Source: Pleurotus ostreatus/Saccharomyces cerevisiae fusant
Lineage: Eukaryota > Opisthokonta
Length of the DNA stretch: 54,202 nt
Direction of reading: 5' to 3'
Assembly (NCBI GenBank): GCA_024196135.1
Contig: JAMQCK010000135.1
Coordinates: forward strand, 1-54,202
Shown: one piece after another, positions 4,427-34,577 of the stretch
Layout of the letters: each line of letters opens with the position of its first letter
Numbering within the stretch: the stretch's first letter is position 1
Program-made: the position numbers and the translations under genes
Notes under the pieces: generated by a model
The model's database searches: none
What the model was told of the DNA's origin: nothing
The model's input: only the letters and a program-made list of their open reading frames with translations

Positions 4427-5885
4427 ATGGCTGCCAACCCCGACCTCGATCGCGTTACCGCGCGCCTCGTCGCCGAGCTTGCCCTCGAGGATCTTGCCGC
4501 GATCAATGGCCGTCGCAAGGGTAAAGCGCGTGAAGATGTTCCACCGACGGACGAGGACGTGGCGATGGCGGAGCAGTTGCTGATCTACGAGGCGATGTTG
4601 CAAGCGATGGACGACTTCCGTTTCGCGGAGAGCTTGGACGACGCGCTGGAGGCCGATGCGAGAGTGCTGGCAGCGGAGCAGGCGGCGATGGATGACCGGC
4701 GATTTGCTGAAGCTCTGGCGAATGGGCACGATCTGCCGCACAGATCAAGAGCGCAGGAGCTAGCGGAACAAGGCTGTGTCGAAGTAGAGCCCGGGTGAGT
4801 GTACAGCGCAAGCGGCAGAGACCAAGGACTCACTGGCGTGCGATCGATTCCAGCACAGACGCCAGATCGACAGGCGCGACCAACCCCGCAACCCCCTCGA
4901 CAAGCAATCTGGGAGGAACGACAGAGTTAGTCAAGGTTCAGCTACTGCAAACGATAAGCCCGCTGACCACCATCTAGTCGCATCATCATCGAATGCATCG
5001 TCTGCATGGACGATATCGCGACCCAACAGCGTGTCCAAGGCCCCTGCGGCCACTTCTACTGCCGCGGCTGCACCCGCCAACTCGTTACTGCGGCTCTCCA
5101 GGACGAGTCCCTCTGGCCTCTCCGCTGCGACAATCGCCCCCTCCCCATCCCCGCCATCCGCGCCCTCCTTGACAGCGCCACCCAACGCACCTTCGACGCC
5201 AAGTCCGCCGAACTCGGCACGCCCGCCACGCGCCGCCTCTACTGCCCTAACGCTACCTGCTCCCACTTCCTCGGCGCGACTGACCCAGACGGCCCACGCG
5301 CCGACGTCCGCTGTCCGCGCTGCAGCGCCCTCGCATGTTCGTGCTGCAAGGAAAGCGCACACCCGGGGGCGGCGTGCGGCGAGAACCAGGCCGCGGAAGC
5401 TGTCCGCGCGCTCGCGCGCGCGTCCGGCTGGCAAACGTGCCCCGAGTGCAAGAACATCGTCGAGCTCAGCCAGGGCTGCTTCCACATGACGTGCCGCTGC
5501 CGCGCGCAGTTCTGCTACCTCTGCGCGGCGCGGTGGAAGAATTGCAGATGTCGGCAGTGGGACGAGGGCCGGCTCTTGGACACTGCACATCTGCGGGTGG
5601 AGAACGAGCTAGGGGCGAGAGCGCGCCAGGCGGCGCCGGATGTCTTCAGGGAAAGGGTCGCGCAGCGGGTGGAGAGGCTGAGATACAACCACGATTGCGG
5701 GGCGGATGGGCATAGGTGGCGCAAGCAGTACGGTGGCGGTCGTTGTGAGAGCTGTCACGATCGTCTAGCGCTGTTTCTCTTGGTGAGTACCACGGAACTA
5801 CGGACGCACCGTGCTAAGCGATCCTCAGTTCTGCAGAGACTGCGCGATGGCGGCTTGCGTACGGTGTGCGCGCAATAGGCTGTGA
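4427..5885 (+). CDS. RBR (RING1-IBR-RING2) E3 ubiquitin ligase
   Basis: Predicted E3 ligase that receives ubiquitin from an E2 onto a catalytic cysteine before transfer to substrate. Four exons, 4427-4794, 4854-4925, 4978-5782 and 5829-5885, give 433 residues. After an acidic helical N-terminus come RING1 (CIVCMDD then CGHFYCRGC), an IBR domain (CPNATC, CPRCSALACSCC, then HPGAAC) and RING2 (CPECKNIVELSQGCFHMTC then CRAQFCYLC). The expected catalytic cysteine, in the GC of GCFHMTC, is about residue 314. The last exon adds a cysteine-rich tail (FCRDCAMAACVRCARNRL). The final RING1 ligand position reads LRCDN, where relatives, including the second RBR gene here, have LRCC; the missing cysteine may weaken one zinc site. 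Substrate is unknown. Confidence 0.88.
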
Positions 5886-16163: not shown

Positions 16164-19100
16164 ATGAGGATGCGGCTCTGGACGCCGCTTATCGTCCTCG
16201 TAACTTCAACTCTATCATGGGCCCTACATGAGTCCGACGTCGGGGTGATCGACTGGCACAAGAGCCTTGTCGGCGTCCCCCAGGTGTATACGCCAGGGAC
16301 GGCGCCGCTCATGCACAGAGTCAAGGGGAAGACGTCCAAGAGTGTCATTTTGTCGGTCACGGATAAGAATGTGCTGGCAGCGTTGGACCCAGTCAGTGGG
16401 GGCGTTAGTACGTGGCAGTATTGAGCTCGTGGCGCGTCATACTAATGGCCCGCAGCCTGGAGGCATGTCTTCGACGACTCAGACCCTGTAGTCTCCTACC
16501 ACAAGTACGAAGATGGTGCGTAGCTCCTTCTGATACTTCCCCCACCGCTTGCTGACAAAAAGGATAGCGGTGGTCGCATTATCGGGCCCTGGCTCTTCGA
16601 CTGTACGAATGTTCGAGTCCTTGACTGGATTCATACTTTTCGAGAGGAAGCTATACGATGACTTGCAAGGCCCCACATCGTCCTTTGGCACCCATGTCGC
16701 CTTCGCGCCGGAAATGGCTGAACTGAACGTCTTGACCGGAGGTCACACCGTCACCCGACTGAACGGCAAGAACGGGGGGAAGACACAGTGGACGTGGAGA
16801 TCGGAGGACCAAGGGTGCGTGCGCATCTTCCAGTCAATACTACGAAACCTGAAGCGGGCCCTAGCTCTCTCGTCACGTACTTCCAGCTCGTGAACACCGC
16901 AGAGGCCGTATACGCGATTGGAGTTGCCAAAGAGTTCGCCTCGTACACCGTCCACTTGACCGCCATCGACCCTATCACCGGCGCCGAGCTTGCCTCGCGC
17001 CGCGTCCCCTCCGATGTCACCGACCCCTCCCAAATTATGACTCTCACAAACGGCGACCAACGAGCTGTCGTGTGGCTTGAGAAGGGCAAGCTCAAGTCGA
17101 TCCCCCTCGAGCCCAAGCTGCTCGCCCGACCTCTGCAAGCCAATGACGCGGACGTTGAGGAGCTTCTGGACATTACTCTGGCCAACCAAGGCATGCTCGT
17201 GGTGAAGAAGACCAATGGCGCGGGCCGTATTGTCAAGCTCAGCGAAAAAGAGCCAGGCGTCACCGATACGGTGTGGGACTTCGAGGTGCGCATGGTTCTC
17301 CTGCACTGTACGCAGGATGCTGAGCTTTCCGCAGGTGCCGTCCGCGCCCGCGCTGTACTCCGGCGGGCTCGACAAAGACGGCAAGCCGTACATTGCGCGC
17401 CTTTACTGGTCGATCACCTTCAAGGTGCGTTCCTCTCCCTACACTTGTTCTGCTTAATTGACGGTGCTATAGAAAGTCACCGTCGATGTCTTTACCCCGC
17501 ATTTCACCCTCGTCACCGGCTTCACCATCCCCTTCGACACCGACCGCTACGGCAAAATCGAGCACGTACGTCCCTTAACCGCTACTCCCTATCCTCCCCT
17601 TCACCACTAACCTCGCCTGCAGTTCCACATGGACGCCGCTGTCCCCGGCGGCTGGACCGTCCTCACCCGCCTCGTGCTCACCACCTCCACCGGCGCCGTC
17701 CAGTTCTGGCAGCAAGAAGACCTCAAATGGACCCGCGACGAAGCCCTCGCGCACATCGCCGCCGCCGAGTTCGTCGAGCTTCCCGAGCGCGTTGCCGCTT
17801 CCTCCTCCTCCACCTCGCCTTCCACCTCCCGCTTGCAGCGTCAGCTCCGCGACGCGCGACAGCTGCCGCAGTACGTGTATCGCTTCGCCAAGCGCTTTGC
17901 GACGGGCGCGTACGCCTCGGCGACGTCGCCCGCGTCCGAGGTCGGCGTGTTTCGGGACGCGTTTGGCTTTAGGCAGGTCATTGTTGCGGCGACGGCGCGG
18001 GGCGTGGTGTACGGGCTGGACTCGAGCAATGGGGCGGTGCTGTGGAGTCGGTTGTATGAAGATAAGGATGGGGTGGTAACGCCGGTGAAGGTGTCCACGC
18101 TGAGGACCGTGAGCGATGGAGAGACGCCGCAGGTGGTGGTGGTCGCGCAGAGGAAGACTCCGCAGGTGCGTTTCGAGCAGAGAGTGGAAGATATCGGCTG
18201 ACGATAAGCAGGGCCAGACGCACACGGTGTTGTATCATCTTGATGCCCTGACTGGCAAGGATATGCGCCGCAAGTTCGACAAGGGCGAACCGTTGCTCGG
18301 CTTCGTCGCGGCGAAGAAGCCTTTGGCGGATGCCTTCCTCCTTGACGCTGAGTCCAGGGTAGTCGTTCTAGTTGATGAGTCCCTTGATGTATGTCCTTTT
18401 TCGCCTGACTCGTCAACTTCACCTACTCAATGGCCATGCAGTACACCATCTTCCCCGAGACCAAGGCCTCCGAAGTCACCTTCGCCACCTACGCCTCCTC
18501 CCTCTACTTCCCTCTCCTCGAGCACGGCCGCCTCTCCGGCTATACCCTTGGCTCCGACAGCGCCTACCCCGCCTGGACCATCCCCGCCACCCACGGCGAC
18601 AGCATCGACGCGCTCATCCCCCTGTCCCGCGGCCCCATCGCGAGCCTCGGCAAGGTCGTCGCGGACCGCAAGACGCTCTATAAGTACCTCAACCCGCGCC
18701 TCGTCGGCGTGCTCACATCCGGTACCTCTGGCTGCGGCGTCTCAGTCGTCGACGCCGCGAAGGGCACGGTGCTGTATCATGCGCGCGTTCCCGCGGTGCG
18801 CGGAGTGTGCGATGTGCACGCGTCGTTGACGGAGCATTGGCTGGTGTACTCGTACTACGAGGGCGAGGCTGCTGGGAGCGGTGTCACGGGCTACCGGGTG
18901 GTTACGGTCGAATTCTACGAGGGCCATGCGCCGGATGAGAAGACCGGAAGGTGTGTTTATCGATTGCTGGCCGCTTTGTATGTGCTGACCGTGCGCAGTG
19001 CTGAGCTATCCGCCTTCGATACGGGTCTCCTCAACTACACGACGTACGAGCAAACCTACGCGTATCCCCAACCCATCACCGCGCTCGCAACGACGCGGAC

Positions 19101-19637
19101 GAAGCACGGGATAACCATGAAAGACCTTATTGGTACGTATGCGATCTTTGTCGGCGGACGTGTGCTGACTCAACTTTCGCAGTCGCCCGCGCTGATGGCA
19201 AGATCCACTCGCTGCAGCGTCGACTACTCGACCCGCGGCGACCCAAGCATAAGCCTACCGCACAAGACGCAGAAGAATTGCTCATCCAGTATGAGCCCGT
19301 CCTGCCCGACGATCCGAAGAGGATACTGTCGCACAAATATGAGGTGAGTGCAGCCTCGGTCGATGCGCTTTGAGTGATACTAATGCTAGCCCCACAGATC
19401 ACGAACACTGCGAAGATCATCACCAGTCCCGCGCTGCTCGAGTCGACATCGCTCGTGTACGCGTACGGACTCGACATGTTCCTGACGCGGGTGTCGCCAT
19501 CGGGGACGTTCGATGTTTTGAGCGAGGGGTTCAACAAGATCCAACTGGTGTTGACGATCTCGGCGTTGGCGATCGGATTGGTCGTGACCCGGCCGATGGT
19601 GAGGAGAAAGAAGTTGCGGGAGAGGTGGTACTCGTAG
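16164..19637 (+). CDS. EMC1: ER membrane protein complex subunit 1
   Basis: EMC1 is the large lumenal beta-propeller subunit of the EMC, an insertase for tail-anchored and multipass membrane proteins. Twelve exons (16164-16407, 16456-16515, 16568-16814, 16865-17285, 17335-17424, 17473-17565, 17623-18165, 18212-18388, 18442-18950, 18999-19132, 19183-19343, 19398-19637) join to 972 residues, the usual family size. Start ATG 16164 gives a signal peptide (LWTPLIVLVTSTLSWA) directly before the typical HESDVGVIDW. Recognisable stretches are WRHVFDDSDPVVSYHKYED, ALSGPGSSTVRMFESLTG, the PQQ-like propeller repeats, and in the last exon SATS-region sequence ending in one membrane segment (LTISALAIGLVVT) and a basic tail RRKKLRERWYS. 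Constitutive expression is expected. Confidence 0.95.
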
Positions 19638-23074: not shown

Positions 23075-23474
23075 TTTGCGAGGAGAGGGTTCGATCATTT
23101 TTTGGACAAATGTTTGATGCGTCAATGGTGGCGCAGGAACAATCAAACGTTATGCCTATCACAGGGAGTAGCGAGACTCGCAAAGGAATCAAGGGAGATG
23201 TCGAATGTACAAACGAGCATGCAGAGCATTAGAGCAGCGCATGAATCCAAGTTTTATCGTCTGCAGACGCTTTTCAGCTTCGACAGGGCCTCTGATGGTC
23301 CAGAGTCCGTCACAGAAAAACTTGATCATCACAGAGCATTGAATATGTGTACTCATTTCCTTGTCGATGAATTATGCATCGCCGAGGAGCCCAACATGAA
23401 CACGCGCGGTGTTTCGAGCGACAAGCGAAGACAGAGGTACTGTGCCTGGAGCTGTCAGTGAGCTCAATCTGAGC

Positions 23475-23482
23475 TATATAAT
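23475..23482 (+). promoter_or_regulatory. TATA box of CFEM-like gene 1
   Basis: TATATAAT lies 72 nt before the ATG at 23547, a plausible core-promoter position in this array. Confidence 0.5.
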
Positions 23483-23546
23483 GCGGATAACGGACGAAGC
23501 TTCTGCAAACCTTCACGAGCTCGCCGCACAAGAACGTAATCAAAAA

Positions 23547-24001
23547 ATGCGCTTTGGACGTCTCATCCTGCTCGCCGTCGTCTCGGGAGTCGCGCTTGCA
23601 GCGCAGACGGATTTGGACACACTTACGCGTGAGTAAAGGATACTTCCTTGTTCACCCACGCGCTTACCTTCAAACCAACGCCATCCTCCCTCTGTCTCCA
23701 CCAACGCCCCACACGCCCGTCTCTTCACTCGCGCTCGACTCGCTCGTCCGTCGCCCGCGTCCTTCGCGCCCTTCCGTCACCCGCGCCCATCCCGCCATTC
23801 CCTTGCTCGTGCACATCTCTTTCGTTCTCTCCTCCGCCCCCAGCCTGCGCTCGCAAGTGCGCCGCGGAGAACTGCCAGTCGAAGCGCGACTGCATCTGCG
23901 GCACGCACTGGATGGCGCCGTGCATCGGCGTCGAGTGCCCGGATGATGCGTCGCGGCTGGCGGCTTCAACGTCGGTGACGAAGTACTGCAATGGGGGGTG
24001 A
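23547..24001 (+). CDS. CFEM-like small secreted cysteine-rich protein 1
   Basis: 79 residues from exons 23547-23628 and 23844-24001 (215-nt phase-1 intron). Exon 1 encodes a signal peptide (GRLILLAVVSGVALA) and a short spacer TDLDTLT; exon 2 starts in the Pro codon before the first cysteine and encodes the whole module. Eight cysteines follow C-x3-C-x4-C-x5-C-x-C-x7-C-x4-C-x16-C. The order, the CxC and the last spacings match CFEM domains (fungal extracellular proteins, some binding haem or iron), but C2-C3 is 4 residues rather than the usual 8-12, so I call it CFEM-like. There is no GPI signal or membrane anchor, so a soluble secreted protein is expected. First gene of the array. Confidence 0.8.
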
Positions 24002-24829
24002 GAAAGCAGGAGGAGACGCGTGCGGAATGACGAAGAAAAAGAGGAGAAGAGAAAAGGGAAATCGCTGAGGAATTCACGTAGGACGGGGAAGAAGGGCGCG
24101 TTTGAGTTGTACTATAGTCATGCCTATGGACCCCGTCGTCTCAGGCCCCATCAAAGCAGTCACAGCACCAACGTGATGCGCGCTCGTTAGACGACTGAAC
24201 TCGCAAGTAAAGCGGGGACGCCAGGAAGGTCCGCCAAAGCCGCGTCAAGGCTCGAGTGGACAATGAGGCGCCCTAGCTCATTCCTATAGAAAGCAGCTGT
24301 CGCACAAATGACGATGAAGAGACCATTACCAGCGTCCACGGGATAGAGCGCTTGAGCAGCCGCGCTCGACGGTCGTATTTCGGGATCAATCCCCTCTGGG
24401 CAGACGTCCAGTGCCCAGTCATGCGCATCCGGCCATAGAAGGATGTCTTGTCGCGTGTCACGATGAGCAAGGCAGTCGTTCCTCGAGAACGAAAAGGATA
24501 TCCATCAACGAGATTAATCTTCCGCAGATATCAACGAGGACCTACAAGTGCAGCTGAGTCACTTTCTGCGTAATTGGATCGTACACTGGTCACTAGACGA
24601 AATCGGGCGATAGATTTGGGTGTTGCATCGCACAGTAAGCTCACCGTCAAAGTCCACGGAATATTCCAGGCAGGCCGCATGAATGGAGCGGTGCAAGCTT
24701 CGATGAGTCGGGAAATCGGTCGACCGACTGACCGAAGCCATTATGTACGGCCCCTGCAGAAATATAAGTCGCGCAGGTATCAGCTTATGAGAGTCAACCC
24801 CAGGCACACCTAGGTCGCACCCACAAGTC
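24002..24829. other. Spacer between CFEM-like genes 1 and 2
   Basis: No supported ORF. An AATATAAG TATA-like box at 24761-24768 belongs to gene 2 and lies 69 nt before its ATG. Confidence 0.45.
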
Positions 24830-25186
24830 ATGTTTGTCTCGACCATCGTCAGAGTTGCCGTCGTGGCTCTCGCAGCTATCGGAGCTGCGGCTAGCGAGGA
24901 CAGCGTCAATCTGCCGCGTCTGGCGGGTAAGTGAGCGTCGTATATACAGCATCTTCAGAGGGCTGACCGTATCACCATCGCTATAGATTGCGCTCTCTTC
25001 TGCGGGAGCGATGTCTGCACCCCGGGGGCGACGATCCAACCGTCCGACCCGTCGTGCCAATGCCTCTTTGGTCCGACGCGCGTCAACCCCTACGTCGCCT
25101 CGTGCATGGAGCTAGAGTGCCCGAGGAATCAGAGGGACGTCGCCTTCGGGACGTTGTACACGTACTGCAGTCGCCATAGCCCGTAG
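24830..25186 (+). CDS. CFEM-like small secreted cysteine-rich protein 2
   Basis: 98 residues from exons 24830-24926 and 24987-25186 (60-nt phase-1 intron, GTAAGT donor). Signal peptide STIVRVAVVALAAIGAAA, then a short spacer ending LPRLA. The module is C-x3-C-x4-C-x12-C-x-C-x11-C-x4-C-x15-C, with longer loops before C4 and C6 than in most of the array. The C-terminus is CSRHSP. Gene 4 is its close duplicate, with the same tail and 3' flank, so genes 2 and 4 form one subfamily and genes 3, 5 and 6 another. Expected to be soluble and extracellular. Function unknown. Confidence 0.82.
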
Positions 25187-25599
25187 TGGGTACCGATTTA
25201 CCGAGCGCGAAGGCCTTCGGCGTTCGCCGGAGTGGGGACGAGACGGCGGGAAATGGAGAAAGAAATGAGTTGGAGAATAATGCAAAGTTCGTTCGCTTGC
25301 TTGACGTACGATCCGGGGTCTGACTCTCGGAGGAGGCTGTTAGTGTACACATCTGGATCGTTGGAGAGACCATGACAATGTCTGAGCGCGTTGGTAGATA
25401 TACTCACCACCGTAAGCCGACAGCGCGCTCGCGAGATGCCGACTACTGCGATTGCTATACTGAAAGTTGACGCAGTCGGAGCCAGACTATCTTCTAAATT
25501 TTCTAGTGGTCAGCGTAAATCGTCAGGCCTAAAAGGAGGAGCGAAGGGTATATAAGTGAGAGACAGCTGGAAAGGAACCCACTCTTCATCGATATAACG
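25187..25599 (+). promoter_or_regulatory. Promoter region of CFEM-like gene 3
   Basis: TATATAAG at 25549-25556 lies 51 nt before the ATG. The last 200 bp are nearly the same as the region before gene 5 (TATATAAG at 27086, 52 nt before its ATG), so both copies inherited one core promoter. No gene is present. Confidence 0.55.
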
Positions 25600-25914
25600 A
25601 TGCGCTGCGCAATCATTACCATCGCTTTCTATGCCATCGCGTCCATGGCGGCAGGTGATCCCAGTGTACTCACGCGTCAGTATCATTCAATATTATCCAC
25701 TCTTCTGTCGTTCCGTACTTCCTACCGCCACTGACACGCCTTCGCAGCATGTGCTAGGAAGTGCGCTGAGGAAAACTGTCAGTTAGACTACAACTGCGTG
25801 TGTGACTATACGGGGAGATGGGTCACCGTTTGTATCGACGAAGAGTGCCATTTTACCCAGACGGAGCAGGAGGAGGCATTTATGTCCATCGGACAGTATT
25901 GCTGGGGGAGCTAG
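25600..25914 (+). CDS. CFEM-like small secreted cysteine-rich protein 3
   Basis: 80 residues from exons 25600-25675 and 25748-25914 (72-nt phase-1 intron). Signal peptide RCAIITIAFYAIASMAA, then DPSVLT and the Pro split by the intron. Module C-x3-C-x4-C-x5-C-x-C-x9-C-x4-C-x17-C; the region between C7 and C8 is Glu-rich (TQTEQEEAF). Close paralogue of gene 5 in the duplicated unit and of gene 6. Soluble, no anchor. The acidic face could bind metal, but that is speculation. Confidence 0.83.
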
Positions 25915-26139
25915 AAGTCAGGGAAAGGCGGGGAGCGAAGGCCATGCACGCAAGTTCTTGTGAAGCTGCAGTAGATCGACGACTTGGTGTCACAAATGAT
26001 GATCATACGACGCGGAGCATCTTTTTCACTGCGTTATCGCTGTAGCAAACACTCGTCAGCCTATCGAGCTGCAAAGTATGTCAGGACGAACTCGTATGAC
26101 TGTTCAGATGGGCGTGCATCACGCAATGGACAGCCTCTG

Positions 26140-26245
26140 CAAATGGGGCAGGTCGCTTAGCCCCGGGACGACGTTCGAGAATCACGTCGGTCGTATGAGG
26201 TACACAACCACCCGAATTGCGACCGGCTGGTACGCATACATAGCC
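26140..26245 (+). repeat. Promoter-side repeat shared with 28318-28412
   Basis: This upstream segment of gene 4 matches the upstream segment of gene 7 across about 95 bp, for example ACGACGTTCGAGAA, CATGAGGTACAC-like and GCGACCGGCTGG. Genes 4 and 7 belong to different subfamilies, so the promoter was copied or retained independently of the coding part. Confidence 0.75.
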
Positions 26246-26345
26246 TCCCTAACTCTTCATGTGCCCGGACTGCGGGAATATAAGAATGCGGAGTCGTGGC
26301 TGTCAAGCAGAAATCTCGGACCCACCTCCATCGCGCGCACAGGCC

Positions 26346-26731
26346 ACGTTTGCATCTAACATCGTCAAAGCTGCTGTAGTAGCTCATGCGGCCAACGCTG
26401 TCACGGCCAGCCAATTCGACGCTAACCTACATCGTCTGGCGGGCGAGTGAGCGTTCTTTCCCTTGTTAGGATCGAAGGGCTTACCGTTTCGCCACTCCAC
26501 CTCGTCGTGCTGGATCTGCCGTCCCCCGTCCGTCTAGACTGCGCCTACCACTGCGGCATCGACGTCTGTATTCCTGGAACGCCGCTGTATGACCCTACTT
26601 GCGACTGTCTGTTCGCATCCAACCATGTAAACTCCTACGTTGCGTCGTGCATGGAGCAGCGATGCCCGAGGGACCAGAAGGACGTCGCCTTCGGGACGTT
26701 GTACACGTACTGTAGCCGTCATAGCCCGTAG
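26346..26731 (+). pseudogene. CFEM-like gene 4: start codon lost, splice donor changed
   Basis: Duplicate of gene 2. At the aligned start, 69 nt after the TATA box as in gene 2, ATG has become ACG (26346-26348). Exon 1 keeps its exact length (97 nt, 26346-26442) but the donor GTAAGT is now GCGAGT, and the leader has a His in its hydrophobic core (AAVVAHAANA). Exon 2 (26538-26731) is fully intact: eight cysteines, the same CSRHSP end and no stop. Upstream in-frame ATGs at 26259 and 26286 lie before or on top of the TATA box and would not give a secretion signal. Most likely a recently inactivated gene; GC-AG splicing and ACG initiation, though rare, are possible. Confidence 0.7.
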
Positions 26732-27137
26732 GGGTACGCCTTCAAGTAGCGCGGCGGCCTTTGATGTCAGCGGAGCGCAGCTGGGATGGAGGGGAGGTTG
26801 AGATAGAAAGACGATAGGAGAAGGGATATGTAGTTCTTCCGCTTGATGTACGCTTCGGGGTCTAAAGTTCGGAGGAGACAGCGTCAGCGTACAATTTTGG
26901 ATGGCTTCGGAGACCATGACTGAGCGCGTTGGTGGGTATGCTTCACCGTAGGCTGACAGCGGGCTCGCGGAGATGCCAACCACCGCGATTTCTATACTGA
27001 GAGTCGACGCAATTAGGGTCCAACCGTCTTCTAAAATTTCTAGCGGTCAGCGTAAATATCTAAGACTGGAATAGAGAGCGAAGGGTATATAAGTGAGAGA
27101 GACCGCTGGAAAGAGCCCACCTTTCACAACGACAGCA
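26732..27137 (+). promoter_or_regulatory. Promoter region of CFEM-like gene 5
   Basis: TATATAAG at 27086-27093 lies 52 nt before the ATG. The region is collinear with 25187-25599. No gene is present. Confidence 0.55.
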
Positions 27138-27450
27138 ATGCGCTGCGCAATCATCACTATCGCTCTCTTCGCCGTTGCGTCCATGGCGGCACGCGATCCC
27201 AGGGTACTCACGCGTGAGCATCTACTCAACATGGCCATTTATACCGTCGTCCCATACTTCCCACCACCTCTGACGCGCTTTCGCAGCATGTGCTAGGAAG
27301 TGCGCTCGAGAGGCCTGCCGGCTAGATCCGGACTGTGTATGCGGCTACGCAGGGAGATATGTCACCGTTTGCATCGACGAGGAGTGTCACGACACCGAAA
27401 AGGAGGAACAGGAGGCCCACGAGTCCGTCACAGCGTATTGCGAGGGGTGA
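27138..27450 (+). CDS. CFEM-like small secreted cysteine-rich protein 5
   Basis: 79 residues from exons 27138-27213 and 27287-27450 (73-nt phase-1 intron). Leader RCAIITIALFAVASMAA, spacer DPRVLT, then PCARKC. Module C-x3-C-x4-C-x5-C-x-C-x9-C-x4-C-x17-C with an acidic C7-C8 loop (DTEKEEQEAHE). Duplicate of gene 3; the signal peptide and the first cysteines are almost unchanged while the loops differ, which suggests either relaxed or diversifying change in the loops. Confidence 0.83.
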
Positions 27451-27845
27451 TGAGCATTGGGAAGGCTCGCGGGGGAGGATGAGACGCGTTCGTCCTGTCT
27501 TGTAAAACCGTTCATTTGGGTAACATGGATGACTTTGCGCTGGAAAATATGCCGGTATGAAGACGTGTGAGCCAAGTCGCTGATACGCACCGTCTACGTA
27601 AGAGCCTCTGATAGAGTCGGGGTAACTGCTGAAAATCGGTGCCGACTGCACGAAGTGCATAGCTGCGAGATGCCGCCCACTGTAAGTGCCATACGAGAAG
27701 TTGACGCGACTGGAACCGGATTGAAGATTCGGTTATAGGTAAATGCGACCGTCACGGGCACTCCTAACAAAATGGCTGACTGGAGTATATAAGCCTGAAG
27801 AAGGACGCAGAGGAGAGCTCACCTACCATAGCGCTTACTGCAACA

Positions 27846-28157
27846 ATGCGCCACACGATCCTCACTGTCGCCCTCTTTTCCGTCGCAGCCCTCGCTGCAC
27901 ATGGTCCTAATGTACTCACGCGTGAGTTAACCCATCATCTGAGCCAGCGCGCCGTTCTTCGGAATTACCGCCTCTGACATACTATTGCAGCCTGCGCTTT
28001 GGACTGCGCTGAGAGAAATTGTCAGCTGAACCCCGAGTGCATGTGCGAGTATGTGGATGGTCGTTTCACAACTTGCATTGCCGTGGAGTGTCATAGCTCT
28101 GCGAACGAGGAAGAGGACGCGTTCGAATCCGTTGGAAGGTATTGCGGCTGGCGTTGA
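27846..28157 (+). CDS. CFEM-like small secreted cysteine-rich protein 6
   Basis: 80 residues from exons 27846-27921 and 27991-28157 (69-nt phase-1 intron). Leader HTILTVALFSVAALAA, spacer GPNVLT, then PCALDC. Module C-x3-C-x4-C-x5-C-x-C-x9-C-x4-C-x17-C with acidic loop ANEEEDAFES. TATATAAG at 27786-27793 is 60 nt before the ATG. Same subfamily as genes 3 and 5. Its 3' flank (about 28220-28280) resembles the 3' flank of gene 3 (about 26060-26110). Confidence 0.83.
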
Positions 28158-28317
28158 GGGGGCGGAAGAGCGCGGGTTAGAAGGAGAATGCGAGTGTTGC
28201 TCGTGTTGTTACTGTGCCACGTATCTGTTGGTCTACAGAGCTGCAGAGCATGTCAGGGAGAAAACATATGAATCGTGAGATGTACACCCACCATCCACGA
28301 GAAAGCCTCCGAACATG

Positions 28318-28412
28318 AGGCAGGTCGCCTAGCTCCAAGACGACGTTCGAGAACCACGCCGGTCGCATGAGGTACACCATCAGCCGAGCTGCGACCGGCT
28401 GGCGAGCATACA
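28318..28412 (+). repeat. Promoter-side repeat shared with 26140-26245
   Basis: Upstream segment of gene 7 that matches the segment upstream of gene 4. It ends at a CATACATAAC TATA-like stretch near 28407. Confidence 0.75.
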
Positions 28413-28496
28413 TAACTCTCGCGCCTAAGTCACGAGCAAAAGCTAGCTTGCCTTCGACCCTCGCCTCGAGCCTCGACACCTACCATACCATCCTAA

Positions 28497-28903
28497 ATGC
28501 GCTTCGCCGCCATCATTTTTGCTGGACTTCTCGCCAGCTATGCGCAAACGCGGTCGCGTAAGTGATCTTTCCATACTTAGCTGGGAGTCATACTTACCTA
28601 CTGTTTACGCATTCCTTTGCGCCTCCCGCCCGTCTTGCCGGTCTTTCGACGCCTCGTTTCTCCTTAGCCTGCGCCAACAAGTGCGTGAGGCAGGTGTGCG
28701 GCCCTACCGTCGGCGCCATGCGCCCTTGCGTCTGCGACTCTGCCGTCAGTAAGGTCAACACGTGTATCCATACCGAATGCGCGGCGAAGGAGCGGAAGGC
28801 AGCGTACCGGGCGGTGCACAAGGATTACTGCGGGTGGGCGGACTCGGATGTTTCAAATGCGTGCTGGAGTTGGGATAGGACATTTGGGCGTCCGATGCAA
28901 TGA
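28497..28903 (+). CDS. CFEM-like small secreted cysteine-rich protein 7, extended C-terminus
   Basis: 98 residues from exons 28497-28557 and 28668-28903 (110-nt phase-1 intron). Short leader FAAIIFAGLLASYAQ, then the Pro-Cys junction. Module C-x3-C-x4-C-x10-C-x-C-x9-C-x4-C-x16-C; the C7-C8 loop is Lys/Arg-rich (AAKERKAAYRAVHKDY), opposite in charge to genes 3, 5 and 6. After C8 comes a 23-residue tail with a ninth cysteine and two Trp (ACWSWDRTFGRPMQ). An unpaired ninth cysteine could allow dimerisation; that is inference. Confidence 0.8.
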
Positions 28904-29768
28904 ATAGTGGTTGAGGTTGATTTTGTAAACCTGTATGGTTCCATGCTGCTTGACTTACCTTATGCGCGGCGTTGAATCTTTGTATTTCGAGTGGTGCTTT
29001 GCTCAGCTTCGACTTGGAGGGTCCCGGTCGAGCTGCTCTTATAGCGTGGGAAGACGGGACGTAACAACAAAACGCGCCATTGCGCGCAATGTCGACAAGC
29101 TCTTGCGCCTGTGCTAAGCTGGCCGCATACCTGCGCTGGGGCGGGGCTTCCGCGGCTCGCACTCGTAGTGGGCAGTTCCGATGCTCACAAAAAGGCAAAT
29201 GAGTACGTCTCATGAGCCTTGAGGGTAGCGTAGCATCCAGCGCAATGTCGAAATTATTCATAGGTAGATGGAAGTCAAGAGCACGTCGAATTTGCCAGTG
29301 ATTCGACGCCACAAACTCGGGGATGCAACATTCGGCAAGTTCCGATGTGGACCCACAACTCACGCGAACATCAAACCAGGACCAGCTTTGCTCGGCGTTT
29401 GTCCATTGGTCGACGCAGAAGATTCTGAGTACGTAGTCCGATATTTTCCCTCGAAGGACCGTGCTCAAGTCAGAGCGCTCTACCGTCATCGCGGCTCTGA
29501 GCATTAGGTATCTACACGTTTACGCTACACGTACTTAGCCGCCGAGAGTTGCGTTTGAGAACGCATGCGTTACATTCGATTTGCATCTAAGAGGTAGTAC
29601 TGCTCGCTGCCGTCGTAACTGTGCAGAGATAAGGGCAACGTGGATGATGTGCTGAGCCGAACAGACTTTGAAGGGTATAAAGCTCAAGAAAAAAGAGCAC
29701 TTTCACAACGCCTCTTCGACGCCCCATAAAGCCATCAGCCGATTCAACAAACCACTCAACCGACCACC
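28904..29768. other. 865-bp spacer between CFEM-like genes 7 and 8
   Basis: A TATAAAG at 29676-29682 is 93 nt before the next ATG. ORFs antisense to gene 7 extend into this spacer but look like shadows. Confidence 0.45.
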
Positions 29769-30121
29769 ATGCGCTTCAACGCCCTCACCTTCGTCGTCGT
29801 CGCTGCCCTCAGCGGCCTCGTCAGCGCGCAGTTCGAGCTCACCCGTCAGTACAACCCAACCACCGCCGCCACCCGTCACTGTGACTCATCTCTCATATAG
29901 CCTGCGCGCGAGACTGCGCGTTCGACAAGTGCGGTGGTCCCGTTCGCGCCTGCGTGTGCGGCTACCGGCGCAGCGACATCGACTCGTGCGTCGAGTCTAC
30001 CTGCCGGGAGGGCACCGAGCGGAGCCAGGCGCAACGGTCTGTGCGCAACCTGTGTGGCGGGCGGTTCGACGCGAAGGAAGGCAGTGAGCAGGCGCCGATC
30101 GTGGAGCAGCAGGAGGCGTAG
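29769..30121 (+). CDS. CFEM-like small secreted cysteine-rich protein 8
   Basis: 98 residues from exons 29769-29844 and 29901-30121 (56-nt phase-1 intron). Leader FNALTFVVVAALSGLVSA then QFELT and PCARDC. Module C-x3-C-x4-C-x6-C-x-C-x9-C-x4-C-x16-C, followed by a 23-residue acidic, cysteine-free tail (KEGSEQAPIVEQQEA). Shares the CGY/CGH and DSC sequence around C5-C6 with gene 9, forming a third subfamily. Confidence 0.83.
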
Positions 30122-30643
30122 ACAGCTGGACTAGATCTGTAGCGAGCTTGCCGATGTAGAAGGGGGCAACTTGAAGGATTGCGTTCGTTGGAAAGATACA
30201 CAGTCCTCGTCAATGATCTCAGAGGACCTCGTGTGACAACCGTATTCAGTCTCCATGCGTTGGCGTAGTCAAACGTTCTGAAGAAGAGGGAACCTATCTG
30301 AGAGCATTCCGCATCTACCAGATGATTTCCACAGGGTGATCAGCCACAGCACTGGCTGCCTCGAGCGCCAGACTCATTTTTTGGAAAACTTGTCGTACGG
30401 GTGTTCAAGGCCAATCCTTCCGATGGAACCTGTGAAGCGATAAGCGCAGCAAAGAGCAAGCGGCAATGACGAGCGTACGTTAGTGTGCAGTGAACATCAG
30501 AGTAATGAGGACGTACTAGACGTCGCTCGCCCGAGCAACGTCGGTGGCGCATGGCTTGGTACATGGCGCTAGGGTATCGGCCTTGGTGTTGTTCGCCACC
30601 AGCACACATCTTACCCTTCACTATCGACTGCAAGCAGACGCCA
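30122..30643. other. Spacer between CFEM-like genes 8 and 9
   Basis: No supported ORF and no clear TATA box before gene 9. Confidence 0.4.
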
Positions 30644-31039
30644 ATGCGCTGGATTTCCCTCGTCCTCCTCGCGTTCGCCGGTTTCGCGAGTGCGCAGTAC
30701 TATCTGACTCGTGAGTATCCACTGTAGCCGACATGGATGCGCATACTCACCGCGTTCCCTTCACGCTCGCTTCGACCTTGGCCCGCTCACGTCCCTGGCC
30801 TTCTTTCCCATCCTCACCCACGCCTCTCATCTGGCACCACCCATAAATCACTGTCATCACGCCCACGCCTCGCAGCCTGCGCCTACGAATGCGCCATTAC
30901 CAGCTGCAAGGGCGAGAAGGCCGACTGCGTGTGCGGGCATGAGAGCACCAACATCGATTCGTGCATATCCGCGATCTGCCCGGCGGGTCTGCCGCAGGCT
31001 GAGGCGCGGGAGTCGGTGAAGAAGTTCTGCAGGAGGTGA
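30644..31039 (+). CDS. CFEM-like small secreted cysteine-rich protein 9
   Basis: 76 residues from exons 30644-30710 and 30876-31039 (165-nt phase-1 intron). Leader WISLVLLAFAGFASA then QYYLT and PCAYEC. Module C-x3-C-x4-C-x6-C-x-C-x9-C-x4-C-x16-C and a two-residue end (RR). Last plus-strand member of the array. Confidence 0.83.
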
Positions 31040-31790
31040 TTGGACGTGAATCGGCAGCGGAGAGAAGAGACGGGAGGATGAGATGTAGGATTCGTCAGGT
31101 GTGCGATCACGGAGGAGAAGAGCCGCTGACAGTGCGCGAGTAGAAAATCATGCAGAGAATGAGAGAAAACCCCAATCTAAACGTACCTCTTCGTCGTCGG
31201 TGGTCTCGGGTCTCAAGCAGGCGAATCGTAGCGCCTGTCGTTGGTAATCGTCAGAGGACCACGCGCATAACCTTCCTGATAGAAGCAAAACAAGCGGAAG
31301 AGAGAATCAGGGATTCACGTATATCAGTGCTGAGAGAGCGGACGCGCTCTTGTGCGCTCAGACGGTACCGCGAAGGTCTCAGAGCTATGGTCAAGTGATC
31401 CTTCTTGAACGGGGCGATTCTACAGCTGTGGCCGTTCGTGCACTGAAAAAGCGTTTTCTATGTCACTTGGGTATATTTTAAACCTCTAGGAGCCGTCGTG
31501 TTGGGTTATGGGACATAGCAGCGAAGGCACAAGAGTGCGAGAGCCAAAGAGAAGAGGAGCACATACAAGGACAAGCGCCACGCGCGTGCACGTGGGCTGT
31601 GAATGTTCCCACGCTAAAGACCAGTGCTGCCGCGCCCCCGCCGACAGACTCGTCCCGAACCTTCATCATCGACTGCGGCTCGCCGCTCCCGACGTCGTCC
31701 TCAACGACAAGACAAGACAAGACCTTTCAAGCTCAACGGTCTCTTCAACGCTACCGAACAGTATCAACGAACTCGACAGTCGCTACCGAC
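31040..31790. other. Intergenic, end of secreted-protein array and promoter of HAPSTR1-like gene
   Basis: GTATATTTTAAA near 31470 is TATA-like. Short ORFs on both strands lack support. Confidence 0.4.
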
Positions 31791-32967
31791 ATGGAGTCCC
31801 TCAACACCCTCGCCAGCTCCCTGCCCTCCGCTAACCAGGGCGCGGACCAGGCGCTTATGAACGACTTCAAGGGTGAGTATACGTCCTGTTATTAGCTTTC
31901 TCCTTCAGCTTGCGAAAGCACACTCGAGACATCCCTTATCGTTGTTCTATGACTCCTTGCGCGCCACATTCATTGACGAAGGATACTTACCTATCGCATA
32001 CCCGCAATCCCCCTCATTCTCTTTCATCTGCCCGCCCGTGTCGTCTCATACGAACACCGACTCATCATCCTTGCACAGCTGCCGCACTCAGCATCACGAA
32101 CTTCTACCGATCCTCCCGAGCTGCCTCCGCACGCGCATATGACTCAGGCTACGCCGCCGCCTGCCACGACATCCTCCGCATGATCGAGCGCGGCGTCTCC
32201 GCAGACGGCGGCCCCGCCGCAATGGCGAGCAACCGTGCCAGTGCGAGCGAGAACCCCATGAACGTTGGCCGCGTGATGGACTGGATCGAGGCACGCCTCG
32301 AGGCCCTGAAGGCGCGCGAAGAGGAGGAGGCTGAGGACGAAGCACGGAAGGATGCGAAGGATGAGGGCCGGAGGGTACGTTCTGACGTTGTGCTCGTCGT
32401 TTATACCGATCGCGATGCTGATCACCCGCTTTGCCCATCCAGCCGATCGTGCAGGCAAATGCGCCATCGACGCCATCGTCCCCGCAGGCGCCTGCGCGCA
32501 CCCTCGCCGTAAAGCCTGCACCTCCGCAACCTCAGCAGGACCTGCGCTTCAAGCCCGACCCGCAATCCTCGATGTCCGAGAACCGCCAACCGCTTGTTGA
32601 ACATCAACCCCAGCAACCACCAGCGCCGGCCTCCTTCCCCTTCATCTCGTTTCCTGCACCTGAGCCGCTCGCCCCTCAGCCGCTTCCGTCTCCTTCGATC
32701 GGCGCAAAGCGTCGGCATGCTGTCATGATGATGCTCGACAACCAGCCCGGCGAAGACGTCTCTGGACGCGGCGTGTCTCCTACGGCGGCTACCGTGAGCC
32801 GGGGGATGGCCAGCGCAGTACGAGGCGTGAGGCAGAGCGGTGGTGCGGCAGGTCCTGGTCGTCGGAGGCCGCGTCGTGATCGAGATGCGAGGGATCGCGA
32901 TGTCATGATGGAGGTCTCCGATCCGGAAGATGGTGGGCGGGAGCGGAAGCGTGTTGCGAGGAGGTGA
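31791..32967 (+). CDS. HAPSTR1-like (TAPR1/DUF4588-type) nuclear stress-response protein
   Basis: 300 residues from exons 31791-31872, 32079-32374 and 32443-32967. Exon 2 carries the helical core: DFKAAALSITNFYRSSRAAS then AYDSGYAAACHDIL and MDWIEARLEALKARE, which follows the order of the conserved domain of animal HAPSTR1/C16orf72 (residues resembling NAATAVTNLYKES, then a GYQ helix). Exon 3 is Pro/Gln-rich, then has GAKRRHAVMMMLD and a basic tail (GGRERKRVARR) likely acting as a nuclear localisation signal. In animals the family works with the HUWE1 ubiquitin ligase in stress signalling; transfer of that role to this fungus is inference. The assignment rests on remembered motif order. Confidence 0.6.
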
Positions 32968-34257
32968 AGGAGCGTTGATGAGGGCGGTGAAGCCAGCGAT
33001 CGATCTTGTGGAGAGTGATCGAAGTCGGGGTCGGATGGCTGGGATGGTTGGAGATGAAGGACGGCCTCGGATAAGGACGAGTGGAGGACGACGACGCGAG
33101 TCGATTGACGTGGACAGAAGGTGCGTCGTCGTGTTGCCGGATATCGGGACAGCTCTCATTCTGCTTCTAGCTTCCCAGGCTCCCTAACGTCCGCCGTCAA
33201 CGCGCTCATTGATCGACGTCTTTGTACCCATTAGTGCTCAAGCACTTCTCCGTACCCATATATGCCCTGTCCCTGTTTCGGCCGTACCATATACGCCCAT
33301 GCCCCTTCCTCCATCCATCACCAACGTCCAATCCCTACCTTACGCTCTTCCTAGTCCATCGTTCCCTCTTGACTTCGTCGTCTTCCCGTGGCTACGTCCT
33401 CCTCGTTCAGTAGTTACTTCGCCCTCTCCCTCCTTCCTTCCTTCCATCGTCCTACGCACCCGCACACACTTACTTACCCCTTGACACGTCTATACCTACG
33501 CTCCTTCCCGTAGTTACAGTTTGGTTCACGAGGCCGTTAGGCCGTACGGTCTGCTACTTCTTCATCATCCACGTCGTCGGCGCTGGGGGCTATACGCCCT
33601 CTGCGACGATGGTTCAGCTTCCTCTGCGTCGATGGTTCAACGCTCCCGACATCGTTAGGCCTTACGCCCTCTTCACCGTAGGTACCACATCGTCGAACCC
33701 AACATATGTTACACCGTCCATCCACCCCAGTAGTTACACACCCTCCCATTGTCCCGATCGATATGATACTGCATCAGCATATGTATAAGTAGAGACCGAA
33801 TGATCGAATGCGTTGTGATTGGACGTTGGTGGGGAGCTGCTCAATGCATGCGAGGAGGCGAGTTGTGGGCAGCGATTGCGACGTGTAGACTCGGTGAGTC
33901 TACCGGATGCTCTTCATTGGTGCGTGCTCGCCGGTGCTCGCTCTCTTGACGCGCCGTCGAGCCGTCGCGCTCAGGTCAGTCGCAAATCGACTACGTTTCA
34001 AGTGAGTTGTACCTGAACGTTGTCGCTGTCTTCCTAGCTCATCGCTCGCACTATAGGTCTCGCAAGTTGATCGCATTTGCATACCGTTCACCTTGGCTTC
34101 ACCCACTCCCCCACTAACCTCTACACGCTTCAACCTCTTCACCACCCCAGGTTTTCCGAACACCGTCCTATTCAAGGCGTCAGCAGATGAGTCGAACGCT
34201 ACTGAAGAACTCAGCGTACTCCTTACTCTCTTACTCCCCTCCGTCAAAGACCCTCCT
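32968..34257. other. 1.3-kb intergenic, pyrimidine-rich 3' flank
   Basis: 33200-33500 is strongly C/T-rich on the plus strand, followed by short imperfect repeats around TTAGGCCTTACGCCCTCT-like words (33535-33680). No supported gene. Confidence 0.4.
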
Positions 34258-34577
34258 TCAAGCCTCGCGGGGGCAGAAATTCACCAGCGCCGCCTTCATC
34301 TCGTCCTCGTCGGCGCAAGCCTTCGCGGCCTTGTCGTAGCACTCCGGGAACGTAAAGCCGTCCTCGAGGGTGCAGCAGAAAGTGGGCCCCATCCTGTTGC
34401 AGACGTTCGAGACGCACGCGGCGCAACTCGGGGCTGTGAGGATAGTAGGTCAGTGGGTGCTAAGTACGTTGTCGAGGATGGCGATGTAGGGAACGACTTA
34501 CAGGTCGGGTCCTGCGCGCCAACGAGGCAGGCGAGGGCAGCGAGGAGGCAGATCGCGGCGAGAGAGGCGAAGCTCAT
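34258..34577 (-). CDS. Diverged CFEM-like small secreted protein 10
   Basis: 83 residues from exons 34577-34502 and 34433-34258 (68-nt phase-1 intron at the same leader/module junction as the array). Signal peptide SFASLAAICLLAALACLVGA, spacer QDPT. Eight cysteines in the mature part with altered spacing: C-x2-C-x4-C-x7-C-C-x10-C-x7-C-x13-C, so the usual CxC is a CC pair. Opposite strand and 3.2 kb beyond gene 9, with one unrelated gene between. The conserved intron phase and position argue for common descent with the array, but convergence is possible. Confidence 0.75.

What the first reader, a model, noticed from the sequence alone, without database searches (positions are those of the whole stretch)
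23547..34577. Array of ten CFEM-like secreted eight-cysteine genes with one shared intron architecture
Seen: nine plus-strand genes in 7.5 kb and one outlier encode 76-98-residue proteins with a leader and eight cysteines, C-x3-C-x4-C-x(5-12)-C-x-C-x(7-11)-C-x4-C-x(15-17)-C. Every gene has exactly one phase-1 intron placed just before the first cysteine, so leader and module are separate exons. Established: the pattern resembles CFEM, but canonical CFEM has 8-12 residues between C2 and C3, and here it is always 4. Inference: a compact, lineage-specific CFEM-like class expanding by tandem duplication, with candidate roles in haem or iron capture, wall interaction or signalling.
Basis: partly seen in the sequence, partly recalled or inferred. 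Interest (0 to 1): 0.85.

Follow-up and report, generated by a model that had tools for sequence, protein, structure and literature searches.

The report
Tandem array of compact CFEM genes
A split-gill mushroom genome carries nine neighbouring genes for small secreted proteins that look like a shortened form of a known fungal surface-protein module called CFEM; it is a variant of a known family, and about half of the copies lack the residue that relatives use to hold haem.

Summary
The array is real. Eight intact plus-strand genes and one probably degraded copy (g4) lie in 23547-31039. Each encodes an eight-cysteine module with C-x3-C-x4-C...C-x-C...C-x4-C, behind a phase-1 intron whose acceptor lies 2 nt before the first cysteine. 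The tenth gene (minus, 34577-34258) has other spacing and shows no sequence link.

The source is Schizophyllum commune or a close relative. The modules are most likely derived CFEM domains: two of nine pass Pfam's CFEM cut-off, no other family does. Pooled with six similar single genes elsewhere in the genome they match its canonical CFEM genes better than 200 of 200 cysteine-preserving permutations (the nine alone: 7 of 200 nulls reach their score). Seven of seven canonical genes examined have the same intron to the nucleotide. So this is a compact CFEM subclass (C2-C3 gap 4, not 8-12), dispersed and locally amplified by tandem duplication.

Haem capture is doubtful for many: the haem-ligand position is Asp in 4 of 9 modules, Asn in one, other residues in four. 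Structure predictions were weak and did not decide the fold. New variant of a known kind; moderate interest.

The parts
23547..24001 (+). g1: exons 23547-23628, 23844-24001; 79 aa; intron 215 nt, phase 1
   Evidence: CFEM 10.4 bits, below cut-off 22
24830..25186 (+). g2: exons 24830-24926, 24987-25186; 98 aa; Asp at -3 of C4
   Evidence: CFEM 22.5 bits, over cut-off; closely similar public protein P0012
25600..25914 (+). g3: exons 25600-25675, 25748-25914; 80 aa; Asp at -3 of C4
   Evidence: no Pfam match; similar to g5
26286..26731 (+). g4: probably degraded copy of g2; module 26540-26728 intact; no start codon at the homologous place, GC donor
   Evidence: module CFEM 22.5 bits, long model 24.8 bits; dN 0.19, dS 1.21 versus g2
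27138..27450 (+). g5: exons 27138-27213, 27287-27450; 79 aa; Asp at -3 of C4
   Evidence: no Pfam match
27846..28157 (+). g6: exons 27846-27921, 27991-28157; 80 aa; Asn at -3 of C4
   Evidence: CFEM 13.5 bits
28497..28903 (+). g7: exons 28497-28557, 28668-28903; 98 aa
   Evidence: CFEM 16.9 bits; relative P0009 in strain H4-8
29769..30121 (+). g8: exons 29769-29844, 29901-30121; 98 aa
   Evidence: CFEM 16.8 bits; 96% identical public protein P0001
30644..31039 (+). g9: exons 30644-30710, 30876-31039; 76 aa
   Evidence: no Pfam match; relatives P0005, P0011
25082..25877 (+). segment (end of g2 through most of g3) repeated at 26627-27416 (end of g4 through most of g5), 74% identical; with 24807-24938 matching 26323-26454 (68%) in the same order
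26066..26242 (+). 177-nt stretch upstream of g4, repeated upstream of g7 at 28238-28414 (76%)
34258..34577 (-). g10: outlier small Cys-rich gene with a leader, exons 34577-34502, 34433-34258, 83 aa; not shown to be related

Best explanation
The array is a local, tandemly duplicated branch of a compact CFEM subclass in Schizophyllum. An ancestral CFEM gene (leader exon, phase-1 intron, CFEM exon) lost about four residues between C2 and C3; the compact form sits at six or more other places in the genome and was amplified here, partly as a two-gene block (g2-g3 and g4-g5). Each copy would make a short soluble secreted protein: leader removed, a helical module held by four disulfides, no anchor-like tail. 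Six of eight intact copies have their own TATA-like box, so they look like separate transcription units. Likely action: an extracellular ligand-binding module around the hypha. Copies with Asp before C4 (g2, g3, g5) may still bind ferric haem or iron; the others have probably moved to other ligands, to wall or surface work, or to antagonism. Shown: gene structure, spacing, similarity to CFEM beyond the cysteines for the pooled class, shared intron position, block repeat, low dN/dS in several pairs. Inferred: secretion, disulfides, fold, direction of the loop change, ligand and role.
For: Pfam: CFEM found in 6 of 9 array modules at E <= 10, over the cut-off in 2 of 9; the only other family listed is one sub-threshold hit on g7. 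4 of 6 dispersed genes match CFEM, 1 over the cut-off; of 10 public relatives 7 match, 2 over the cut-off, best P0013 of S. fasciatum with 26.4 bits and the same x4 spacing. Modules only: 15 compact modules versus seven canonical modules of this genome plus the Csa2 stretch score 23.4, reached by 0 of 200 cysteine-preserving column permutations; array versus dispersed 42.5, 0 of 200. Intron: acceptor 2 nt before C1, phase 1, in 9 of 9 array genes (g4 by eye) and in the best-scored model of 7 of 7 canonical genes, L001-L007. Pro then C or x-C-[A/G] at the start in 7 of 9 array and 5 of 6 dispersed genes. Block repeat. Module dN/dS: g3/g5 0.27/1.47, g2/g4 0.19/1.21, g3/g6 0.41/1.93, g5/g6 0.45/1.88. 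TATA-like boxes 50-93 nt before the ATG in 6 of 8 intact genes; 17 such matches on the whole plus strand.
Against: The nine array modules alone are only weakly above the cysteine framework: 7 of 200 permutations reach their score, and only 3 of 9 are reached by 5 or fewer of 500 shuffles. Three of nine have no Pfam match, and the unspliced genome search with PF05730 listed 11 matches, none in this window. The first profile comparison of the array gave probability 16% and aligned C3-C8 only. The dispersed genes were kept partly because they show the pattern. Two AlphaFold models (mean pLDDT 67 and 63) matched no CFEM structure. g8/g9 show module dN/dS 0.63/0.86, little constraint. Phase-1 introns between leader and module are common in secreted-protein genes (recalled). 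No expression or protein data.
Confidence: 0.8

Rival explanations
1. An independent eight-cysteine secreted family that converged on CFEM-like spacing.
For: C2-C3 gap 4 in 15 of 15 compact modules against 8-9 in 7 of 7 canonical ones; array-only profile score reached by 7 of 200 nulls; no CFEM structure matched, with weak models.
Against: Two array modules and P0013 pass Pfam's CFEM cut-off; pooled class reached by 0 of 200 nulls; intron position identical to the nucleotide in 7 of 7 canonical CFEM genes examined.
Confidence: 0.15
2. Classical CFEM haemophores: secreted proteins that capture ferric haem for iron uptake.
For: Asp at -3 of C4, as in the Csa2 stretch, in g2, g3, g4, g5 and L036; CFEM haem binding in Candida uses an Asp (PMC9635878, passages).
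Against: Asp missing in 5 of 9 array modules (Asn in g6) and in 5 of 6 dispersed ones. Of 78 listed reading frames of 150 aa or more, 20 were scanned with Pfam and none showed an iron or haem gene.
Confidence: 0.2
3. Surface or defence proteins of the vegetative hypha: wall-associated, surface-active or antagonistic CFEM-type proteins without haem binding.
For: In Coprinopsis cinerea three CFEM proteins are strongly mycelium-specific and were listed as defence proteins (PMC4082614, passages); a small Fusarium CFEM protein stabilises emulsions as aggregates (PMC11147851, passages); Asp is absent in 5 of 9 copies here.
Against: No direct evidence in S. commune; no expression data here.
Confidence: 0.4

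Closest known systems
CFEM domain (Pfam PF05730), e.g. Csa2 of Candida albicans, PDB 4Y7S
   Same: Eight cysteines in the same order with C1-x3-C2, C4-x-C5, C6-x4-C7 and C7-x15-17-C8 in the array; leader before the module; same intron position as 7 of 7 canonical CFEM genes of this genome
   Different: C2-C3 gap is 4 instead of 8-12; the haem-ligating Asp is absent in 5 of 9; 7 of 9 score below Pfam's cut-off or not at all
Small CFEM proteins of other Dikarya (e.g. the mycelium-specific CFEM proteins of Coprinopsis cinerea, PMC4082614)
   Same: Predicted signal peptide, several copies per genome
   Different: Their spacing, gene structure and gene order were not compared here
Hydrophobins (eight-cysteine surface proteins)
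   Same: Small, secreted, eight cysteines, multigene families in basidiomycetes (recalled; listing)
   Different: Hydrophobins have adjacent CC pairs (recalled), absent from the nine modules; no hydrophobin match in Pfam

Membership tests
CFEM (PF05730) | Eight cysteines in the CFEM order with C-x3-C, C-x-C, C-x3/4-C | tested here: met
   9 of 9 array modules
CFEM (PF05730) | C2-C3 gap of 8-12 residues (motif in PMC4530338) | tested here: not met
   4 in 9 of 9; yet g2, g4, P0012 and P0013, also x4, pass Pfam's curated cut-off, so the published motif is narrower than the Pfam family. For this reason I call it a derived CFEM variant, not a canonical CFEM
CFEM (PF05730) | Pfam score over the curated cut-off | tested here: inconclusive
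   2 of 9 array modules over, 4 below, 3 without match
CFEM (PF05730) | Asp before C4 that ligates haem iron | tested here: not met
   Asp at -3 in 4 of 9, Asn in 1, other in 4; also absent in 2 of 7 canonical modules. Not every accepted CFEM protein has it (Asn-type in PMC8867779, passages)
CFEM (PF05730) | Csa2-like helical-basket fold | tested here: inconclusive
   Helical models, 4 and 3 helices, mean pLDDT 67 and 63; no PDB match with E <= 0.001
CFEM (PF05730) | Gene structure of this genome's own CFEM genes (phase-1 intron, acceptor 2 nt before C1) | tested here: met
   9 of 9 array genes (g4 by eye), 7 of 7 canonical genes examined
CFEM haemophore | Ferric haem binding | not testable with these tools
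   needs recombinant protein

The most novel reading that the evidence does not exclude
A distinct compact CFEM subclass arose in the Schizophyllum lineage by a deletion in the C2-C3 loop, spread through the genome and split, inside one array, into Asp-type haem or iron binders and Asp-less copies with a new extracellular role, so that one locus shows the step from haem scavenging to another function.
Probability: 0.35. Interest if true: 0.55.

Novelty: new variant of a known kind. Interest (0 to 1): 0.38.

Why it matters
It shows that the published CFEM spacing rule misses a branch in a model mushroom. It also offers one locus where Asp-bearing and Asp-less copies sit side by side and could be compared for haem binding, in a species with a standard laboratory strain: H4-8 has relatives of g7 and g8 on contigs of the same length (1,833,194 bases, so probably one scaffold).

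Tried and rejected

Rows dropped: of the 11 PF05730 matches in the genome, eight came as loci; seven (L001-L007) form the canonical set; L008 was left out because its gene model was unclear, and the three matches without loci were not examined. Of the weak matches outside the window, L041 and L047 gave no eight-Cys pattern (L041 was in the script; L047 too) and were dropped; L022, L023, L032, L033, L035, L036 were kept, so the dispersed set was chosen partly by the pattern. Of 18 public relatives, P0017 and P0018 (short or partial) were not examined; P0002 and P0011 read through the intron. For L023 the intron was read by eye (one search printed no row for it). In one search the coding ends were typed 2 nt too long; stop codons and translations were unaffected and the ends were corrected.

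Literature: the listings (titles and abstract starts) showed no paper on this array or on a compact x4 CFEM class; subscription papers and preprints are mostly not in that library. Passages of PMC4161775, PMC2996950 and PMC9684206 gave nothing on Schizophyllum CFEM genes.
Full report
What the window is. The window is contig 320 of a 40.05 Mb, 1277-contig genome. The nearest public proteins are named Schizophyllum commune, one 96% identical to g8, so the source is S. commune or a close relative.

The observation. A six-frame scan found nine plus-strand modules with the eight-cysteine order; a pattern covering all nine occurs 9 times in the window and 0 times in 60 order-2 and 60 order-5 Markov sequences. 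Eight genes (g1-g3, g5-g9) have clean models: ATG, hydrophobic leader, one GT-AG intron of 56-215 nt in phase 1, acceptor 2 nt before the first Cys codon, 76-98 aa. The letters of public proteins P0001, P0003, P0007, P0009 and P0012 fit the same splicing; two unnamed ones, P0002 and P0011, read through the intron. g4 has an intact module but no start codon at the place homologous to g2 and a GC donor; an upstream in-frame ATG is possible but would leave no N-terminal leader. In another strain the matching module, inside a fused model, has one cysteine replaced and ends before C8 (P0004). Against decay, g2/g4 modules show dN 0.19 and dS 1.21, so g4 was under constraint for much of its life; its decay, if real, is recent. 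The tenth gene, g10, differs in spacing, has no Pfam match, and its score is reached by 101 of 500 shuffles for the compact profile and 392 of 500 for the canonical one.

What it is related to. For the nine array modules Pfam offers CFEM and, once, a sub-threshold hit on g7: CFEM is over the cut-off for g2 and g4, below it for g1, g6, g7, g8, absent for g3, g5, g9. Among ten public relatives CFEM appears in 7, over the cut-off in 2, best 26.4 bits in S. fasciatum. One relative in strain H4-8 (P0007) has a UniRef name that begins 'Extracellular m' and is cut off in the listing, so part of the class may already bear a CFEM-type name. Own-genome searches with array members found weak matches elsewhere. 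Six of these are genes with a leader, a phase-1 intron and the same C-x3-C-x4-C...C-x-C...C-x4-C frame (L022, L023, L032, L033, L035, L036). Array and dispersed modules are clearly one class: profile score 42.5 against a maximum of 20.9 in 200 permutations that keep the cysteine columns.

Link to canonical CFEM. The genome has 11 PF05730 matches, none of them in this window, where the search reads exons unspliced. Seven canonical modules (L001-L007) have C2-C3 gaps of 8-9, against 4 in all 15 compact modules. Modules only, the 15 compact against canonical plus the Csa2 stretch score 23.4, above all 200 nulls (maximum 21.5); the six dispersed alone are reached by 1 of 200 and the nine array modules alone by 7 of 200. 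Single modules against a canonical profile: all 15 lie above their shuffle mean; 6 of 15 are reached by 5 or fewer of 500 shuffles (g4, g7, g8, L023, L032, L035). Independent of sequence, the best-scored model of 7 of 7 canonical genes has a phase-1 intron whose acceptor is 2 nt before C1, as in 9 of 9 array genes (g4 by eye); two of the seven donors are unusual (L005, L006). In the dispersed compact genes the distance is 2 nt (L023, by eye), 5 nt (L022, L033, L035, L036) or 29 nt (L032). Introns after leaders are common in secreted genes (recalled), but the same nucleotide position relative to C1 is harder to explain by chance.

How it grew. The stretch 25082-25877 (end of g2 to g3) recurs at 26627-27416 (end of g4 to g5) at 74%, and 24807-24938 recurs in the same order at 26323-26454 at 68%; upstream stretches of g4 and g7 share 177 nt at 76%. 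So at least one event copied a two-gene block. Module dN and dS: g3/g5 0.27 and 1.47, g3/g6 0.41 and 1.93, g5/g6 0.45 and 1.88, g1/g5 0.52 and 1.52, but g8/g9 0.63 and 0.86. This speaks for purifying rather than diversifying selection in most pairs compared (five of six with g2/g4), with dS values above 1 near saturation. TATA-like boxes lie 50-93 nt before the ATG in 6 of 8 intact genes, none found for g7 and g9.

What it may do. The proteins end in short tails after C8 with no anchor-like hydrophobic segment (sequence). CFEM haem binding in Candida uses an Asp (PMC9635878, passages); in the Csa2 stretch an Asp lies three residues before C4 (that this is the ligand is recalled). That position is Asp in g2, g3, g4, g5, Asn in g6, and Lys, Met, Val, Lys in g1, g7, g8, g9; Asp in 1 of 6 dispersed; Asp in 5 of 7 canonical. 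Loop lengths differ, so the position is approximate. Asn-type CFEM proteins of Verticillium dahliae were inferred to have lost iron binding and act in another role (PMC8867779, passages). In Coprinopsis cinerea three CFEM proteins are strongly mycelium-specific (PMC4082614, passages). The most likely reading is a set of soluble extracellular binding modules, some possibly still able to hold haem or iron; this step is inference.

Structure. AlphaFold2 on P0001 with 16 sequences: mean pLDDT 67, blocks of 76-92 over residues 21-80, four helices; on P0013 with 28 sequences: mean 63, three helices. No PDB match with E <= 0.001. This neither supports nor refutes a CFEM fold.

Reach. Three protein searches gave 18 relatives with E <= 1 in all: 14 named S. 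commune, 1 S. fasciatum, 3 without a name. The search needs shared five-residue words, so absence elsewhere is not shown. The S. fasciatum protein groups with g2 and g4 (99/99), so that branch is probably older than the split of the two species.

Verdict. A real tandem array of eight intact compact-CFEM genes plus one probably degraded copy; a new variant of a known family. The published motif (C2-C3 gap 8-12; PMC4530338, text parts 1 and 2 of 3) is not met, while Pfam's own family does take in some members. That it descends from CFEM I put at about 0.8; what it binds is open.

Noticed in passing
34258-34577 minus: g10, a lone small Cys-rich gene with a leader, a CC pair and a phase-1 intron; an own-genome search found only this locus; family unknown.
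   Followed up: partly
26286-26731: g4 keeps a constrained module but lacks a homologous start codon and has a GC donor: recent decay or an altered gene.
   Followed up: partly
L003 and L004 (contig C1261): Two canonical CFEM genes lie on opposite strands about 1.4 kb apart.
   Followed up: no
L001 (C650) and L002 (C655): Near-identical canonical CFEM genes on two contigs; may be alleles or recent copies.
   Followed up: no
L032 and L033 (contig C958): Two compact CFEM-like genes about 5 kb apart on opposite strands of one contig.
   Followed up: no
18409-19344 plus; 4967-5875 plus: Reading frames with Pfam matches to EMC1 C-terminal and to IBR/RING domains.
   Followed up: no
23470-29680: TATA-like matches sit just upstream of six array genes although the whole plus strand of the window has only 17.
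   Followed up: partly
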